Position numbers and translations under genes: made by a program | Part shown: positions 3,749 to 16,374 of the stretch, piece by piece | How the letters are laid out: each line of letters starts with the position of its first letter | Numbering within the stretch: position 1 is the first letter of the stretch | Notes under the pieces: model-generated | Seen by the model: the letters and a program-made list of their open reading frames with translations, nothing else | Databases searched by the model: none | Told to the model about the DNA's origin: nothing | IMG/VR virus record: IMGVR_UViG_3300033571_015747 | Span: 1-20,631 of that record | From: a virus | Length of the DNA stretch: 20,631 nt | Direction: 5' to 3' (one strand)

Positions 3749-3754
3749 TAAATA
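3747..3754 (+). promoter_or_regulatory. Late promoter box GATAAATA
   Basis: GATAAATA is one base from the T4 late consensus and overlaps the stop of the exonuclease gene. The ATG at 3778 follows after a leader with GGAG at 3765-3768, as expected for a late virion gene. Confidence 0.6.
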
Positions 3755-3777
3755 CTCGAACAACGGAGTATTGAAAC

Positions 3778-5418
3778 ATGGCCATAGTACAGATCAGCCG
3801 TATCCAAGTACGTAGAGGAAAAAAGAACGGTGCAACTAGCATACCACAACTAGCATCAGGCGAGTTAGGGTGGGCTGTAGACACACAAGAACTGTTTATA
3901 GGAAACGGTAGCGTACAGGAAGGTGCCCCTTTTGTAGGTAATACTAGAGTACTTACAGAAAAGTCTAACATTTTTGATCTAGTTAGCCAGTATCAATTTA
4001 AGAAACCTTTTGCAGGTTCCCCAGAAATTCAAACAGGTGCTAGTCCTGCCAGCCCAGTAACTAGAACTTTACAAGAACGATTAGATGATACAGTCAGCAT
4101 CCGTAGTTTTATCACAGAAGAAGATATTCAAAACAACGATTACGCAGATGTTATACAACGTGCTTTAGATCAACTGTATCTCAACGATGCTACCAAAGGC
4201 ACTGCTGAAAGCCGTATCAAACTACACTTCGAAGCAGGTGTTTATCCAATCTCTAAAACTATCTACATACCTCCTTACGCACATCTAGTAGGTGCAGGCA
4301 AAGATAAGACTGTATTTTTAGGCAGTGACATTGTACTTGCCGCTACCATCGGTGATGATGCGCAGGCTGGCACAGATCATTCTTTGTACAACAATTATAA
4401 TCTTGCTGGCCATGAATTAGTGCAGGCTAGATTTATTGAAATTGAAGGTATCACTTTCCAAAACGACAGTCTAACAAAATCAGTGTTTGAAGCACGAGCT
4501 ATGAAAAACAGTGTATTTTCTAATGTTACGTTTAGAAGTAGTTGGGTTACTGGCGTTACTCCAGGATCAGACAACAACGGACTTACATTAATAGCCTATA
4601 CATCGTTAGTGACATGTCAAGATAATATTTTTAATAGTTGTGATTTTGAAAATGTTGCATATGGTATTGATTCTACTTACGATATTCAACAGTGTATTTT
4701 CCGAGATTGTTTTATTACAAGATGTTATCAGGGTATAACATTTGGATGGGCAGTCAATGGTGTTAATGCCGGTATTGTATATGGTCCGAGATATTGTAAA
4801 ATTGAAAATAGTAAGTTTGATTTTATTGATAACTCGGCTATCCAACTTGGAAGAAAAGTTGGAGCACCTGACATTGAATACTGCTATGGTAACATCAGTC
4901 AGTCAAATACCTTTGTTCGTATTGGCGGCGGGTCGTTAAATCCACAATTTCCTGTGATAGAATTTTTATCGTCAGGTAATGTTTCAACTAATGATTATTT
5001 TGAAAGATCGTTTGACTTGGTAACATCAAATGGTTCTACACCATATGCAGTTAGTGAGTTTTCAGGTTTTACAAATGCCGATCACAAATATAATTACAGA
5101 AAGAACATTGCATCGTCGTTGAATGCTATGTTATTAAAGTTACCTGGTAATGTTAATGCAGTTTATAAACTACATTATCTATATACCAACGATGCTGCCA
5201 GCGTTATGAGAAGAGGCACATTAACTGTGAGCATAGACTTAGTTAATAGTGATGCACATCATACCGACGAGTTTGACGGAGTAGGATCATTAGCCAATGT
5301 TGAAAATTTAGTGTTTAACTCAGTGTTAGATACTGGGTCCGATACAGTGTCTATAGAATACACTACTTCTCAGAACAATGGTGTACTAACGTATTGGTAC
5401 GAGGTATTGGGCCGATAA
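3778..5418 (+). CDS. Tail fibre/spike, Mtd-like N-terminus and beta-helix
   Basis: This is a 546-residue receptor-binding-type protein. Residues 5-45 (RIQVRRG...LASGELGWAVDTQELFIGNG) match the pattern of the Mtd N-terminal domain found on phage tail fibres. Residues 85-115 are a linker. From about residue 140 a right-handed beta-helix (pectate-lyase-like) begins with HFEAGVYPISKTIYIPPYAHLVGAGKDKT and continues with repeated short strands and Asn turns to about residue 430; a separate C-terminal beta domain follows (to 546). The late promoter, Shine-Dalgarno and downstream terminator make it a single-gene late unit. Codon use changes in the helix region (about 4560-5160: many TCG, no CTA for Leu), suggesting an exchanged host-range domain. 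No lytic residues can be assigned, so enzymatic activity is open. Confidence 0.75.
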   Translation: MAIVQISRIQVRRGKKNGATSIPQLASGELGWAVDTQELFIGNGSVQEGAPFVGNTRVLTEKSNIFDLVSQYQFKKPFAGSPEIQTGASPASPVTRTLQERLDDTVSIRSFITEEDIQNNDYADVIQRALDQLYLNDATKGTAESRIKLHFEAGVYPISKTIYIPPYAHLVGAGKDKTVFLGSDIVLAATIGDDAQAGTDHSLYNNYNLAGHELVQARFIEIEGITFQNDSLTKSVFEARAMKNSVFSNVTFRSSWVTGVTPGSDNNGLTLIAYTSLVTCQDNIFNSCDFENVAYGIDSTYDIQQCIFRDCFITRCYQGITFGWAVNGVNAGIVYGPRYCKIENSKFDFIDNSAIQLGRKVGAPDIEYCYGNISQSNTFVRIGGGSLNPQFPVIEFLSSGNVSTNDYFERSFDLVTSNGSTPYAVSEFSGFTNADHKYNYRKNIASSLNAMLLKLPGNVNAVYKLHYLYTNDAASVMRRGTLTVSIDLVNSDAHHTDEFDGVGSLANVENLVFNSVLDTGSDTVSIEYTTSQNNGVLTYWYEVLGR

Positions 5419-5565: not shown

Positions 5566-7872
5566 ATGTCCGGAAACATCATGATCGTCAAACGTGACGG
5601 TCGCAAAGAACCAATTAATATCGAAAAGATACACAAAGTTGCAGAGTATGCTTGTGAAGGTCTTTCAGGCGTATCAGCAAGTCAAATTGAAATGTCAGCC
5701 AATTTGCAGTTTTATGATGGCATGACAACTAAAGAAATTCAAGAAATCATTATACGTTCAGCCAGTGATTTGATTAGTTTAGAAAATCCCAACTATCAAT
5801 ATGCGGCTGCTCGTTTGCTTCTTTATGGAGTTTATAAAGAAGTGTTTGGTCGTTTTGAACCTTTGCCTTTCAGCGAAATGATTCGTAAGAATATTGATGC
5901 AGGTACTTACGATTCTGCTATTTTAGAAAAGTACACAGCAGACGAGCTAGGAAGATTGGAAGGTTGGATTAAACACGACCGTGATGAAGATTTTACCTAT
6001 GCAGGTCTACGTCAAGTTGTAGACAAATATCTAGTGCAAGATCGTAGTAGTGGTAGACTCTTCGAAACTCCTCAGATTATGTACATGATGATTGCCGCTA
6101 CATTATTCGCCAATTATCCTAAAGACAAGAGGATGAATTATGTAAAGAGGTATTATGATGCAATCTCGTCACACAAAATCAATATCCCCACGCCCGTCAT
6201 GGCTGGGGTCAGGACTCCGCTACGCCAGTTTGCCAGTTGTGTTCTTGTCGATGTTAATGATACTCTTAATAGCATCTTTAGCAGTGATATGGCTATTGGT
6301 CGCTATACTGCTCAAAGGGCTGGTATCGGTATTAACATTAGTAGGCTACGAGCCATCAACAGCAAAATTCGTGGCGGTGAAGTGGCGCACACGGGGGTTA
6401 TTCCATTCCTCAAGAAATTCGAATCAACCGTAAGATGCTGTACACAGAATGGTGTACGAGGCGGCAGTGCCACTGTGCATTTTCCTATTTGGCATTTTGA
6501 AATTGAAGATGTGCTAGTGTTAAAAAATAACAAAGGCACAGAAGATAATCGTGTACGTAAATTAGATTACAGTATTCAAATTAGTAAATTATTCTACGAA
6601 CGATTACTGCAGAATAAAGAAATTACATTGTTTAGCCCACACGATGTACCTGGTCTTTATGAGTTGTTTATCAGTGGCGATGATGAACAGTTCCGTACTG
6701 CCTATGAAGCGTTTGAAGCACGTCCAGATATTCGTAAAAAGTCTGTGCCAGCAATGGATTTATTCACACAACTGCTAAAGGAACGTGCAGAAACTGGTCG
6801 TATCTATATCATGAATATTGACCACTGTAACAGTCACAGTAGTTTTAAAGACAGCGTAAGTATGAGCAATCTCTGCCAAGAAATTACACTACCTACTGAT
6901 CCAATTGAACATATCGATGGTGAAGGTGAAATTGCATTATGTATTCTTAGTGCTATCAACGTAGGTATTGTGCGTGAAGAAGAACTAGAAGAAATGTGTG
7001 ACCTAGCAGTAAGAGCATTAGAAGAAATTATTGATTACCAAGGATATCCTGTAATTGCTGCCGAACGTTCAACTAAAGCTCGTCGCAGTCTAGGCATTGG
7101 CTACATTGGCCTAGCACACTTCTTGGCTAAAAATCATGCCAAGTATGATGATCCACGTGCATGGGAGTTGGTACATCGTTTAACAGAAAGTTTTCAATAC
7201 TATCTATTAAAGGCTTCAAATAATCTTGCCATTGAACGCGGTGCCTGCGAGTACTTTAATCGCACCAAGTACAGCGATGGCATACTACCTATTGACACAT
7301 ACAAGCGTGAACTAGACAGTGTATGTAAAGTTGATCTACAACATGACTGGGAACAATTACGTCAGGACATTATACGTCACGGACTACGCCACAGCACATT
7401 GTCGGCACAGATGCCTAGCGAATCTAGTTCTGTGGTATGTAATGCTACAAATGGTGTTGAACCGCCACGTGGTTACCTAAGTGTTAAAAAGAGTAAGAAA
7501 GGACCACTCAAGCAGATTGTTCCTCAATACTCCAGTCTAAAGAATCACTATACACTACTTTGGGACATGCCCAGCAATGAAGGTTATATTAACACCATTG
7601 CCGTGATGCAGAAGTTTTTTGACCAAGCCATTAGCGGTAACTGGAGTTACAATCCATTACATTATGAGAACAACGAAGTTCCGCTTAGTATAATGATGAA
7701 GGATATGTTGACTACATATAAACTAGGTTGGAAGACCAGTTACTATCAGAATACCTACGATTATAAGACAGATGACTCCGTAGAAGAAATTAAAGAAGAG
7801 AAACCGGTCGCTACCGAATCTTCTAAAACTTTTGATTCGGACGGTGAAGTTTGTGAAGCCTGCGCTATCTAA
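5566..7872 (+). CDS. nrdA: Class Ia ribonucleotide reductase, large subunit
   Basis: This 768-residue protein reduces ribonucleoside diphosphates to deoxyribonucleotides together with NrdB. The N-terminus (KRDGRKEPINIEKIH) is the ATP-cone. The catalytic residues are visible: Cys225 (ASCVLVDV), the NLCxE motif at Asn435/Cys437/Glu439, Cys459, the radical-transfer tyrosines Tyr726-Tyr727, and the C-terminal CxxC pair Cys763/Cys766 that is recharged by glutaredoxin. Length and spacing match E. coli NrdA closely. nrdB follows 30 nt later, and a glutaredoxin gene follows that, forming an operon for dNTP supply. Between about 6120 and 6440, around the Cys225 region, codon use turns GC-richer (ACG, GCG, GGG, AGG), hinting at a recombined tract. 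No intein is present. Confidence 0.95.
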   Translation: MSGNIMIVKRDGRKEPINIEKIHKVAEYACEGLSGVSASQIEMSANLQFYDGMTTKEIQEIIIRSASDLISLENPNYQYAAARLLLYGVYKEVFGRFEPLPFSEMIRKNIDAGTYDSAILEKYTADELGRLEGWIKHDRDEDFTYAGLRQVVDKYLVQDRSSGRLFETPQIMYMMIAATLFANYPKDKRMNYVKRYYDAISSHKINIPTPVMAGVRTPLRQFASCVLVDVNDTLNSIFSSDMAIGRYTAQRAGIGINISRLRAINSKIRGGEVAHTGVIPFLKKFESTVRCCTQNGVRGGSATVHFPIWHFEIEDVLVLKNNKGTEDNRVRKLDYSIQISKLFYERLLQNKEITLFSPHDVPGLYELFISGDDEQFRTAYEAFEARPDIRKKSVPAMDLFTQLLKERAETGRIYIMNIDHCNSHSSFKDSVSMSNLCQEITLPTDPIEHIDGEGEIALCILSAINVGIVREEELEEMCDLAVRALEEIIDYQGYPVIAAERSTKARRSLGIGYIGLAHFLAKNHAKYDDPRAWELVHRLTESFQYYLLKASNNLAIERGACEYFNRTKYSDGILPIDTYKRELDSVCKVDLQHDWEQLRQDIIRHGLRHSTLSAQMPSESSSVVCNATNGVEPPRGYLSVKKSKKGPLKQIVPQYSSLKNHYTLLWDMPSNEGYINTIAVMQKFFDQAISGNWSYNPLHYENNEVPLSIMMKDMLTTYKLGWKTSYYQNTYDYKTDDSVEEIKEEKPVATESSKTFDSDGEVCEACAI

Positions 7873-15115: not shown

Positions 15116-15511
15116 ATGAGTATGCATTTAGAAGGTCCTTGGTTGACCACAACAGGCAAGAAAAAAGGCAAGAAGAAATTTGCTTCGGCTGAACACGCTC
15201 GTAAGGCACGTGAGCAAGAAGAATCTTGGAAAGCTCTGCAGAAAAAATGGGCTATAGAAATCGAAACTAAAAAACGTAATCGTGCCTTAACTGCCGAAGA
15301 TCTTTCAACCAAATACAGTTTAAAACCACCCCCAGGTAGAGAAAATCAAAAAATTAACAGTTTACCGTTTACAGGTGGACCTTGTACTAAAGCACCAGAC
15401 AAAGTATATACAGGCACTAAGATTAAAGGCATTGGTACTATGCACAAGTCAAACGCAGTACCAATTTTCTCAGACGAAGAAGCAGTTGAAATTTCTCGTA
15501 TGAGAAGATAA
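15116..15511 (+). CDS. Conserved basic phage protein, 131 aa
   Basis: The N-terminus (MSMHLEGPWLTTTGKKKGKKKF) and the following charged helix (HARKAREQEESWKALQKKW) are typical of a protein that I recall in many marine T4-like phages, without a known function. It is strongly basic in its first 60 residues and has a Pro/Gly-rich second half (LPFTGGPCTKAPDKVYTGTKIKGIGTMHKS). Nucleic-acid binding is plausible. It is driven by a perfect sigma70 promoter as a leaderless mRNA, indicating early expression. The hairpin-rich region begins 14 nt after its stop. Confidence 0.65.
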   Translation: MSMHLEGPWLTTTGKKKGKKKFASAEHARKAREQEESWKALQKKWAIEIETKKRNRALTAEDLSTKYSLKPPPGRENQKINSLPFTGGPCTKAPDKVYTGTKIKGIGTMHKSNAVPIFSDEEAVEISRMRR

Positions 15512-15524
15512 AGTAGCAGTTAAG

Positions 15525-15784
15525 TATAGTTTGATTACGAACTATATAAAAGTACGGTTTCGTAAGAAACTAAGATAGTGGCACAATGGAAGTCAAAAGC
15601 AGAAATTGCGTCCGCGAGTCTTGGCCAATGAGAAACCCGATTTTTCGGGAAGCCATGCTCGCCAAAGATTAAACTCTAATGAAAATTGTTAGAGGGAGGT
15701 CGTTGGAGACAACTCACGAAAACGGGTTCGTGTTGAGCCTAGTTGAGTATCTCCCTTAATGTAATGTAGTAGAAGATCACTACA
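15525..15784 (+). ncRNA. Candidate structured RNA or leader of lysis cassette
   Basis: A 293-nt gap (15512-15804) is filled with short perfect hairpins: TATAGTT/AACTATA (15525-15531, 15540-15546); GTTTC/GAAAC with a GTAA GNRA loop (15557-15570); GCGAG/CTCGC (15614-15618, 15658-15662) enclosing TGGC/GCCA and CCCGA/TCGGG with a T4 loop; CTCTAA/TTAGAG (15674-15679, 15689-15694); GAGGGAG/CTCCCTT (15692-15698, 15751-15757) enclosing GTTG-GAGA-CAAC (15702-15713) and CACGAA/TTCGTG (15715-15732); TGTAGT/ACTACA (15765-15784). Two GNRA tetraloops and a closed three-way junction suggest a real folded RNA. The last stem competes with the Shine-Dalgarno of the endolysin (15792-15798), so a cis-regulatory leader is the favoured reading. 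A free phage ncRNA is the alternative. It is not a tRNA, tmRNA, RNase P RNA or 4.5S RNA by inspection. Confidence 0.55.
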
Positions 15785-15804
15785 CCAAATGAAAGGAGAA
15801 GAAT

Positions 15805-16374
15805 ATGGAAAAAGTAGTAAAATTTGGTTCCTATACACTGGGACTGATAGCCGTGATATTTTTGGTTCAGCAATTAACCACAACCAAATTTGTCACCCTA
15901 AAAGAAAAGAATGGCTATTATAGCCAAGATGTTGTTTCTATCAAAACTAGAGAACAACAATTAGATTGCCTAGCAATCAATATCTACCGTGAAGCAGGTT
16001 ATGAGCCGTTCGAAGGTAAAGTTGCTGTGGCGCAGGTCACTATGAATCGTGTGGCTACAGGACAGTTTGGCAAAGACGTTTGCGGAGTAGTTTATCAAAA
16101 AAACGTGGTCATGGAACGAGTAGTCTGCCAATTTTCTTGGGCATGTGATTCAGTGCATAGAAACAGACCAGTCAACCAAGCCGCATACCGTGAAAGTTAT
16201 GAAGTAGCCAAAAAAGTATTGTTAGAAGGTTTTAGACTTAGCATTCTCAAAGAAGCACTATATTATCATGCCAACTATGTAAATCCGAGATGGCAGTTAG
16301 AAAAAATCGGACAGATAGGCAATCATATTTTTTACAAACCAAAAGATAAAGGACCATCGTATGCCAAACTTTGA
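15805..16374 (+). CDS. SleB-type cell wall hydrolase (endolysin)
   Basis: This 189-residue protein has a hydrophobic N-terminal anchor (about residues 8-24), then a Hydrolase_2/SleB-like domain from about residue 54. The motif LAINIYREAGYEPFEGKVAVAQVTMNRV carries the likely catalytic Glu63. Further landmarks are CQFSWACD (108-115) and ALYYHANYVNPRW near the C-terminus. SleB enzymes are lytic transglycosylases of peptidoglycan. The N-terminal helix may act as a signal-anchor-release sequence or signal peptide, letting the enzyme be exported without a holin. A strong AAAGGAG (15792-15798) sets the start. The structured leader precedes it, and the next gene overlaps by 14 nt, giving a lysis cassette. 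Confidence 0.8.
   Translation: MEKVVKFGSYTLGLIAVIFLVQQLTTTKFVTLKEKNGYYSQDVVSIKTREQQLDCLAINIYREAGYEPFEGKVAVAQVTMNRVATGQFGKDVCGVVYQKNVVMERVVCQFSWACDSVHRNRPVNQAAYRESYEVAKKVLLEGFRLSILKEALYYHANYVNPRWQLEKIGQIGNHIFYKPKDKGPSYAKL

What the first reader, a model, noticed from the sequence alone, without database searches (positions are those of the whole stretch)
15512..15804. Hairpin-dense structured RNA ahead of the lysis cassette
Eight or more perfect short stems fill a 260-nt gap, two of them with GNRA tetraloops (GTAA, GAGA) and one a closed three-way junction (GAGGGAG/CTCCCTT around two hairpins). This density is far above chance for coding or spacer DNA. It does not match tRNA, tmRNA, RNase P, 4.5S or glutamine/downstream-peptide motifs that I can recall. 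It could be an undescribed phage riboswitch or ncRNA class.
Basis: partly seen in the sequence, partly recalled or inferred. Interest (0 to 1): 0.78.

Follow-up and report, generated by a model that had tools for sequence, protein, structure and literature searches.

The report
Phage lysis-gene RNA leader switch
Many uncultured T4-like viruses of bacteria carry, just before the gene for the enzyme that breaks open the host, the same undescribed folded RNA of about 250 bases, which looks built to hide or expose that gene's ribosome-binding site and so control when the host bursts.

Summary
Window 15557-15804 (+) is a real, conserved, noncoding structured RNA, found in 97 distinct viral loci but matching no Rfam family. 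A covariance model aligned to 69 homologues pairs 94.6% of cells, with 22 pairs changed on both sides (shuffles 12.3; none of 500 as high). The RNA lies directly before a peptidoglycan-cleaving enzyme, either SleB/Hydrolase_2 or, in diverged phages, an unrelated RlpA-type transglycosylase: a cis-acting leader of the lysis enzyme. Its 3' end resembles a translational switch: CUCC (15751-15754) can pair with GGAG in hairpin 5 (15705-15708) or with GGAG of the Shine-Dalgarno site (15795-15798). In folding calculations the 3' part alone hides that site (median accessibility 0.04), the native 5' domain frees it on average (0.35), and breaking hairpin 5 hides it again (0.03). Positions 15758 and 15791, opposite each other in the masked form, co-change repeatedly. 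The trigger (small molecule, phage protein or other) is unknown. A new RNA class of a known kind, interest about 0.7.

The parts
15543..15548 (+). TATATA box, probable phage promoter -10 element; it lies where a -10 box would lie if the RNA began at or just before H1
   Evidence: TATATA within about 25 nt upstream of H1 in 94 of 96 homologues, starting 11-14 nt before H1 in nearly all; similar boxes lie before other genes of these phages
15557..15570 (+). H1 hairpin GUUUC-GUAA-GAAAC, probable 5' end of the leader
   Evidence: conserved in all aligned homologues; 99.7% of cells paired, almost no variation, so conserved but not covarying
15571..15579 (+). conserved linker UAAGAUAGU; UAAG may pair with CUUA 15755-15758
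   Evidence: AGAUAGU invariant; the UAAG/CUUA helix is paired in 93% of cells without compensatory changes
15580..15613 (+). H2 hairpin, variable sequence
   Evidence: four of five base pairs change on both sides; top covarying pairs 15583/15610 and 15584/15609
15614..15662 (+). H3: long stem GCGAG-U-CUUGGC / GCCAUG-CUCGC with a conserved inner loop (AAUGAGAAA) and CCCG/CGGG cap
   Evidence: most conserved block; 91-100% of cells paired, mostly one-sided changes
15667..15700 (+). H4 hairpin, variable sequence and length
   Evidence: seven of eight pairs change on both sides (helices 6 and 7)
15705..15754 (+). H5 hairpin; its foot pairs GGAG(A) 15705-15709 with (U)CUCC 15750-15754
   Evidence: 99.3% of cells paired at the foot, without double changes; 11 of 15 inner pairs change on both sides (helices 8-11)
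15751..15757 (+). anti-Shine-Dalgarno CUCCCUU, shared by H5 and by the masked form
   Evidence: CTCCC[TC] before [AT]A(A)GGAG in all 113 unique loci of a regular-expression tally; the two close relatives L042/L060 read CUCUCUU
15758..15758 (+). position that co-changes with 15791
   Evidence: A/G 72, U/C 30, U/U 7, A/C 3, U/A 1; shared changes on two trees
15765..15784 (+). H6 hairpin UGUAGU/ACUACA, hypervariable stem just before the ribosome-binding site
   Evidence: pairs 15767/15782 to 15770/15779 change on both sides; 15768/15781 and 15769/15780 among the three strongest pairs
15791..15791 (+). partner position of 15758 in the masked form
15792..15798 (+). Shine-Dalgarno site AAAGGAG of the SleB gene
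   Evidence: conserved in the loci; ends 6 nt before ATG at 15805
15805..16374 (+). controlled gene: SleB-type cell wall hydrolase (endolysin)
   Evidence: Pfam PF07486 Hydrolase_2, 2e-25; PHROG endolysin families

Best explanation
The element is the 5' leader of the endolysin mRNA and acts in cis as a translational switch. A phage promoter at 15543-15548 probably starts the RNA at hairpin H1. The 5' part (H1-H5, about 200 nt) folds into a compact domain with invariant joining sequences, like the sensing part of a riboswitch or a protein-binding leader. Its last hairpin, H5, holds CUCC in its foot. When H5 is formed, the Shine-Dalgarno GGAG is free and the lysis enzyme is made. When the domain does not hold H5, CUCC(C)UU turns to the Shine-Dalgarno site across hairpin H6 and translation stops. 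This would keep the lytic enzyme off until some cue late in infection. Shown here: conservation, the base-paired fold, the fixed position before two unrelated lytic enzymes, and the conserved complementarity with correlated changes in the masked form. Inferred: that both forms exist in cells, which form is bound by the cue, the direction of control, and the promoter. The nature of the cue is unknown.
For: RNA fold: 69 homologues give 94.6% paired cells (shuffled 88.2), 22 doubly changed pairs (12.3), 263 doubly changed cells (67.5), covariation score 0.221 (shuffled 0.102; slid at most 0.041), 0 of 500 shuffles. Cis position: in 97 distinct loci the RNA ends 2-8 nt before the start of SleB in nearly all, and before a DPBB/RlpA-type transglycosylase in six. 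A scan with only the 3' platform found 101 distinct loci: all have the 5' domain, 95 have SleB or RlpA next, 4 run off the contig and 2 are cut inside what looks like RlpA. Switch: 3' part alone has Shine-Dalgarno accessibility 0.04 (shuffled platform 0.39), full leader 0.35 (5' part shuffled 0.21), H5 foot broken 0.03, anti-SD broken 0.76 (medians of 65 sequences). Co-changes at 15758/15791: 8 branches of a SleB protein tree carry both changes, out of 9 and 10 changes; on the RNA's own tree this is pair 9 of 8515, p = 4e-7 before correction.
Against: In the window itself the calculated fold stays masked even with the full leader (accessibility 0.03), so the open form needs help or the model is inexact. 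GGAG and CUCC are nearly invariant, so their pairing cannot be proved by covariation. The 15758/15791 pair is usually a mismatch (A/G, U/C), and exchange of whole leaders between phages could create some of the co-changes seen on the SleB tree. Energy models ignore tertiary contacts. No transcript, ligand or protein data exist.
Confidence: 0.68

Rival explanations
1. A leader bound by a phage or host protein (as T4 RegA, gp32 or gp43 bind their targets) or by a ribosomal component rather than by a small molecule; the same masking of the Shine-Dalgarno site would follow. This is a variant of the best explanation that differs only in the cue.
For: T4 controls many genes by translational repressors that bind mRNA leaders (PMC3014915). 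The RNA was found only in phages, one copy per record searched, always before the lytic enzyme, not before metabolic genes as many riboswitches are.
Against: About 200 nt of multi-hairpin fold with invariant joining sequences is larger than the simple hairpins such repressors usually need (general knowledge).
Confidence: 0.35
2. A fixed structured leader (translation tuning, mRNA stability, ribosome standby) without a switch between two forms.
For: The full leader gives a mixed result (median accessibility 0.35); H1 at the 5' end and H6 before the ribosome-binding site could just protect or present the mRNA.
Against: The platform masks the Shine-Dalgarno site far more than shuffled sequence does (0.04 against 0.39), and 15758/15791 co-change; a fixed leader explains neither well.
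Confidence: 0.17
3. An independent noncoding RNA that merely sits before, and may be cut from, the SleB message.
For: Probable own promoter; large conserved fold.
Against: The conserved sequence runs through H6 into the Shine-Dalgarno site with no T-run after H6; the association survives replacement of SleB by RlpA and changes in the upstream genes.
Confidence: 0.07
4. A control like that of T4 gene e: a simple hairpin masks the lysozyme ribosome-binding site in long early transcripts, and late transcripts start inside the hairpin and escape.
For: Same gene function, same kind of phage, Shine-Dalgarno masking, promoter nearby (PMC3014915).
Against: Here the promoter box lies upstream of the whole leader, so that transcript keeps the anti-Shine-Dalgarno sequence; and a 200 nt conserved 5' domain would be needless.
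Confidence: 0.08
5. A catalytic RNA, for example a rearranged group I intron (UAAGAUAGU resembles J8/7-P7).
For: Visual resemblance only.
Against: The supposed P7 partner ACUA is absent in diverged members (AACGCC, GACAGA) while UAGU is invariant; no Rfam intron or ribozyme match.
Confidence: 0.02

Closest known systems
T4 gene e (lysozyme) leader hairpin
   Same: Translation of a T4-type phage lysis enzyme is controlled by RNA structure over its ribosome-binding site (PMC3014915).
   Different: The T4 element is a short hairpin escaped by starting transcription inside it. Here about 200 nt of conserved upstream RNA competes for the anti-Shine-Dalgarno sequence, and the promoter box is upstream of all of it. 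Sequence similarity to it was not tested.
Translational riboswitches with anti-SD / anti-anti-SD platforms (a mechanistic kind, not one family)
   Same: Conserved folded 5' domain, then an expression platform in which one strand pairs with either the domain or the Shine-Dalgarno site.
   Different: No ligand known; found only in phages; controls a lysis enzyme; no Rfam match.
manA and wcaG RNA motifs
   Same: Structured candidate leaders found mainly in aquatic metagenomes and T4-like phages (PMC2864571).
   Different: They precede metabolic, photosynthesis and exopolysaccharide genes. No match of this RNA to any Rfam model.
GOLLD RNA
   Same: Large structured RNA named for lake samples and Lactobacillales (PMC12286853); phage-linked (recalled).
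   Different: Much larger and separate from the message (recalled); no match here.

Membership tests
Riboswitch | conserved, covarying folded domain in the 5' UTR | tested here: met
Riboswitch | expression platform with mutually exclusive pairings | tested here: met
   by calculation and conserved complementarity only
Riboswitch | direct binding of a small ligand that changes expression | not testable with these tools
   needs in-line probing and reporter assays
Known Rfam families (4227 models) | score above the family's gathering score | tested here: not met
   none in the window; only chance-level matches for the window, L043 and L198
tRNA / tmRNA | ARAGORN detection | tested here: not met
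   none
T4 gene e-type lysis leader | Shine-Dalgarno site of a lysis gene sequestered by upstream RNA | tested here: met
   predicted for the 3' platform
T4 gene e-type lysis leader | late promoter inside the structure, removing the masking strand | tested here: not met
   the conserved TATATA box lies upstream of H1, about 200 nt before the masking strand; the transcript start was not mapped
Group I intron (permuted) | P7 pairing between R and S elements | tested here: not met
   partner ACUA not conserved
RNA thermometer | melting of the masked site with temperature | not testable with these tools
   the masked stem is weak (4 pairs plus mismatches), but the large conserved domain would be superfluous
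Protein-coding region | conserved open reading frame | tested here: not met
   stops in all frames in 95 or more of 97; lengths vary modulo 3

The most novel reading that the evidence does not exclude
A true riboswitch class, private to phages, that reads a metabolite or ion whose level reports the state of the infected cell and so sets the moment of lysis by opening the endolysin's ribosome-binding site.
Probability: 0.35. Interest if true: 0.92.

Novelty: new variant of a known kind. Interest (0 to 1): 0.72.

Why it matters
How large lytic phages time lysis is an open question. In T4 it is known through holin control (recalled) and the gene e hairpin, and a 2010 review states that no riboswitch or trans-acting small regulatory RNA had been functionally characterised from T4 (PMC3014915). 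A large, widely conserved leader that appears to gate the endolysin, and that stays in place even when the enzyme is replaced by an unrelated one, makes RNA-level timing of lysis directly testable in a common group of uncultured phages. It also adds a well-supported RNA class missing from Rfam.

Tried and rejected
Rfam at gathering and relaxed thresholds on three diverse members: only chance hits (SNORD49, Clostridium-PBP, preQ1-II). tRNA/tmRNA: none. Permuted group I intron, suggested by UAAGAUAGU and GGAGACAACUA: rejected, partner not conserved. Isolated phages by blastn with three members: none. Bacterial genomes by pattern: 79 matches, about what chance gives, none confirmed by profile search; 369 genomes of one class drawn evenly: none, with stricter filters and no positive control. 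Phages with the upstream gene (Acidovorax ACP17, Delftia PhiW-14, BUCT-ZZ01, C48C1): no match to the model. MAFFT misplaced the 3' side of H3 in one subgroup, so covariation was counted on a model-guided alignment, which leans towards the structure; the shuffled and slid controls and the tree test on the MAFFT alignment speak against that as the cause. Linked changes between the H3 loop and the H5 loop (15641/15723) were seen, but I do not claim a contact. Literature searches for a structured RNA before phage endolysins found nothing in the open-access library; papers outside it were not searched.

Full report
What is there. The window is a fragment (one record of 20631 bases) of a T4-like phage. 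Between a small conserved gene of unknown function (15116-15511, PHROG 27048) and a SleB-type cell wall hydrolase (15805-16374, PF07486) lie 293 noncoding bases. The + strand folds better than all but 1 of 200 shuffles (z -3.4).

Homologues. Searching viral contigs with the SleB protein returned 80 loci, of which 76 carry the same RNA upstream. A profile search of all fetched loci gave 177 usable loci, 97 distinct. The length of the leader differs between members and no frame is conserved. The RNA is absent from the INPHARED phage records at the sensitivity used, was not confirmed in any pattern match from about 85,000 bacterial and archaeal genomes, and was not seen in 369 sampled genomes of one bacterial class (a weak test). 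Six viral contigs of 21-278 kb hold one copy each; two others that have the upstream gene hold none.

Fold. Independent minimum-energy folds of most diverse members agree on six hairpins. A covariance model (R1) realigned 69 members. In that alignment 94.6% of cells form standard pairs against 88.2% in shuffles; 22 pairs have changes on both sides against 12.3; the covariation score is 0.221 against 0.102, and at most 0.041 when partners are slid; no shuffle of 500 reached any of the observed values. The strongest evidence is in H2, H4, H5 and, on the free alignments, H6. H1 and the CCCG/CGGG cap of H3 are nearly invariant, so covariation is silent about them. On a tree of the RNA itself the leading pairs out of 8515 column pairs are mostly Watson-Crick partners of H2, H6 and H4.

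Cis position. The RNA ends 2-8 nt before the start codon in nearly all loci. In a diverged group (L179, L198, L202, L211, L232, L245) the next gene is not SleB but an RlpA-like DPBB lytic transglycosylase (PF03330, 1e-22 for one member), a different family with the same kind of target, peptidoglycan. To avoid the bias of fetching by SleB, I scanned with the 3' platform pattern alone: of 101 distinct loci holding it, every one has the 5' domain; 80 have SleB next, 15 RlpA, 4 reach the contig end and 2 are cut within an RlpA-like start. Upstream genes vary, and in several loci an extra gene lies between the small gene and the RNA. So the RNA belongs to the lysis enzyme, not to the locus in general.

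Switch. CUCCCUU (15751-15757) is complementary to the foot of H5 (GGAG, 15705-15708) and, with one bulge, to the Shine-Dalgarno sequence (AAGGAG, 15793-15798). The two pairings exclude each other. In 65 non-redundant members the Shine-Dalgarno GGAG has a median calculated accessibility of 0.04 in the 3' part alone (0.39 when the platform is shuffled, p 3e-11), 0.35 with the native upstream domain (0.21 when that domain is shuffled, p 9e-9), 0.03 when the H5 strand is broken and 0.76 when the anti-Shine-Dalgarno is broken (an earlier run gave the same picture). In the window itself the calculation stays masked with the full leader. In the masked form 15758 and 15791 face each other beside a two-pair AU/(A or G)U helix. 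They occur as A/G 72, U/C 30, U/U 7, A/C 3 and U/A 1. On a SleB protein tree 8 branches carry both changes out of 9 and 10. On the RNA's own tree, built without these columns, 8 of 11 and 11 two-state changes coincide, and the pair ranks 9th of 8515. Exchange of whole leaders could mimic this on the SleB tree but less so on the RNA tree. I take it as good, not final, evidence that the masked form is selected. That the pair is mostly kept a mismatch suggests a stem tuned to be weak; this is inference.

Start of the RNA. A TATATA box stands 11-14 nt before H1 in 94 of 96 members, the place of a -10 element if transcription begins at or near H1. Similar boxes precede peroxiredoxin-like and rubrerythrin-like genes in these phages (names from sequence resemblance only). 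No start site has been mapped.

Comparison with the known. The closest functional analogue is T4 gene e: a hairpin masks the lysozyme ribosome-binding site in early transcripts and late transcripts start downstream of its 5' strand (PMC3014915). It works towards the same end but differs in anatomy. The manA and wcaG motifs (PMC2864571) are structured leaders of T4-like marine phages, before metabolic genes. No Rfam family matches. By its parts the element works like a translational riboswitch or a protein-controlled leader; membership among riboswitches cannot be claimed without a ligand.

Verdict. A real, new, well-supported RNA class acting as a cis leader of phage lysis enzymes, most likely a translational on/off switch with an unknown cue.

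Noticed in passing
L107:4432, L114:4432, L116:4438, L153:2754: Relatives that have the upstream gene but lack this RNA carry a different conserved leader before their SleB gene (TATATATTGTACC hairpin, internal AAGGAGATG, then GCGTAAAGGAG-ATG). It may be a second leader class at the same place.
   Followed up: partly
L083 about 4390-4510; L076 and L077 about 3750-4000: Other relatives with SleB but without the RNA have yet another AT-rich leader with a GGATTGCTGGTG/GGACTTCTGGTG motif before the ribosome-binding site.
   Followed up: no
L184, downstream of the RNA (minus-strand match 6242-6452): A TnpB-like element of about 1.6 kb (named by eye) lies inside the loop of H6, between the RNA and SleB; the short stem arms (GTGA/TCAC) and the Shine-Dalgarno side CACCAAATGAAAGGAG are kept.
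   Followed up: partly
15641 and 15723: A base in the H3 loop and one in the H5 loop co-change G-C to A-U in 4 shared events; possible loop-loop contact, but it does not hold in all subgroups.
   Followed up: partly
L123:4416-4646: One member lacks about 20 nt of the H3 5' strand (GAGTCTTGGCC..GAGAAA) yet keeps the rest and the SleB gene; possibly a natural loss-of-sensing variant or an assembly artefact.
   Followed up: no
L090 (same insert expected in L278), just upstream of the RNA: An extra gene (170 aa, resembling an HNH-type homing endonuclease by eye) is inserted between the small conserved gene and the RNA.
   Followed up: no
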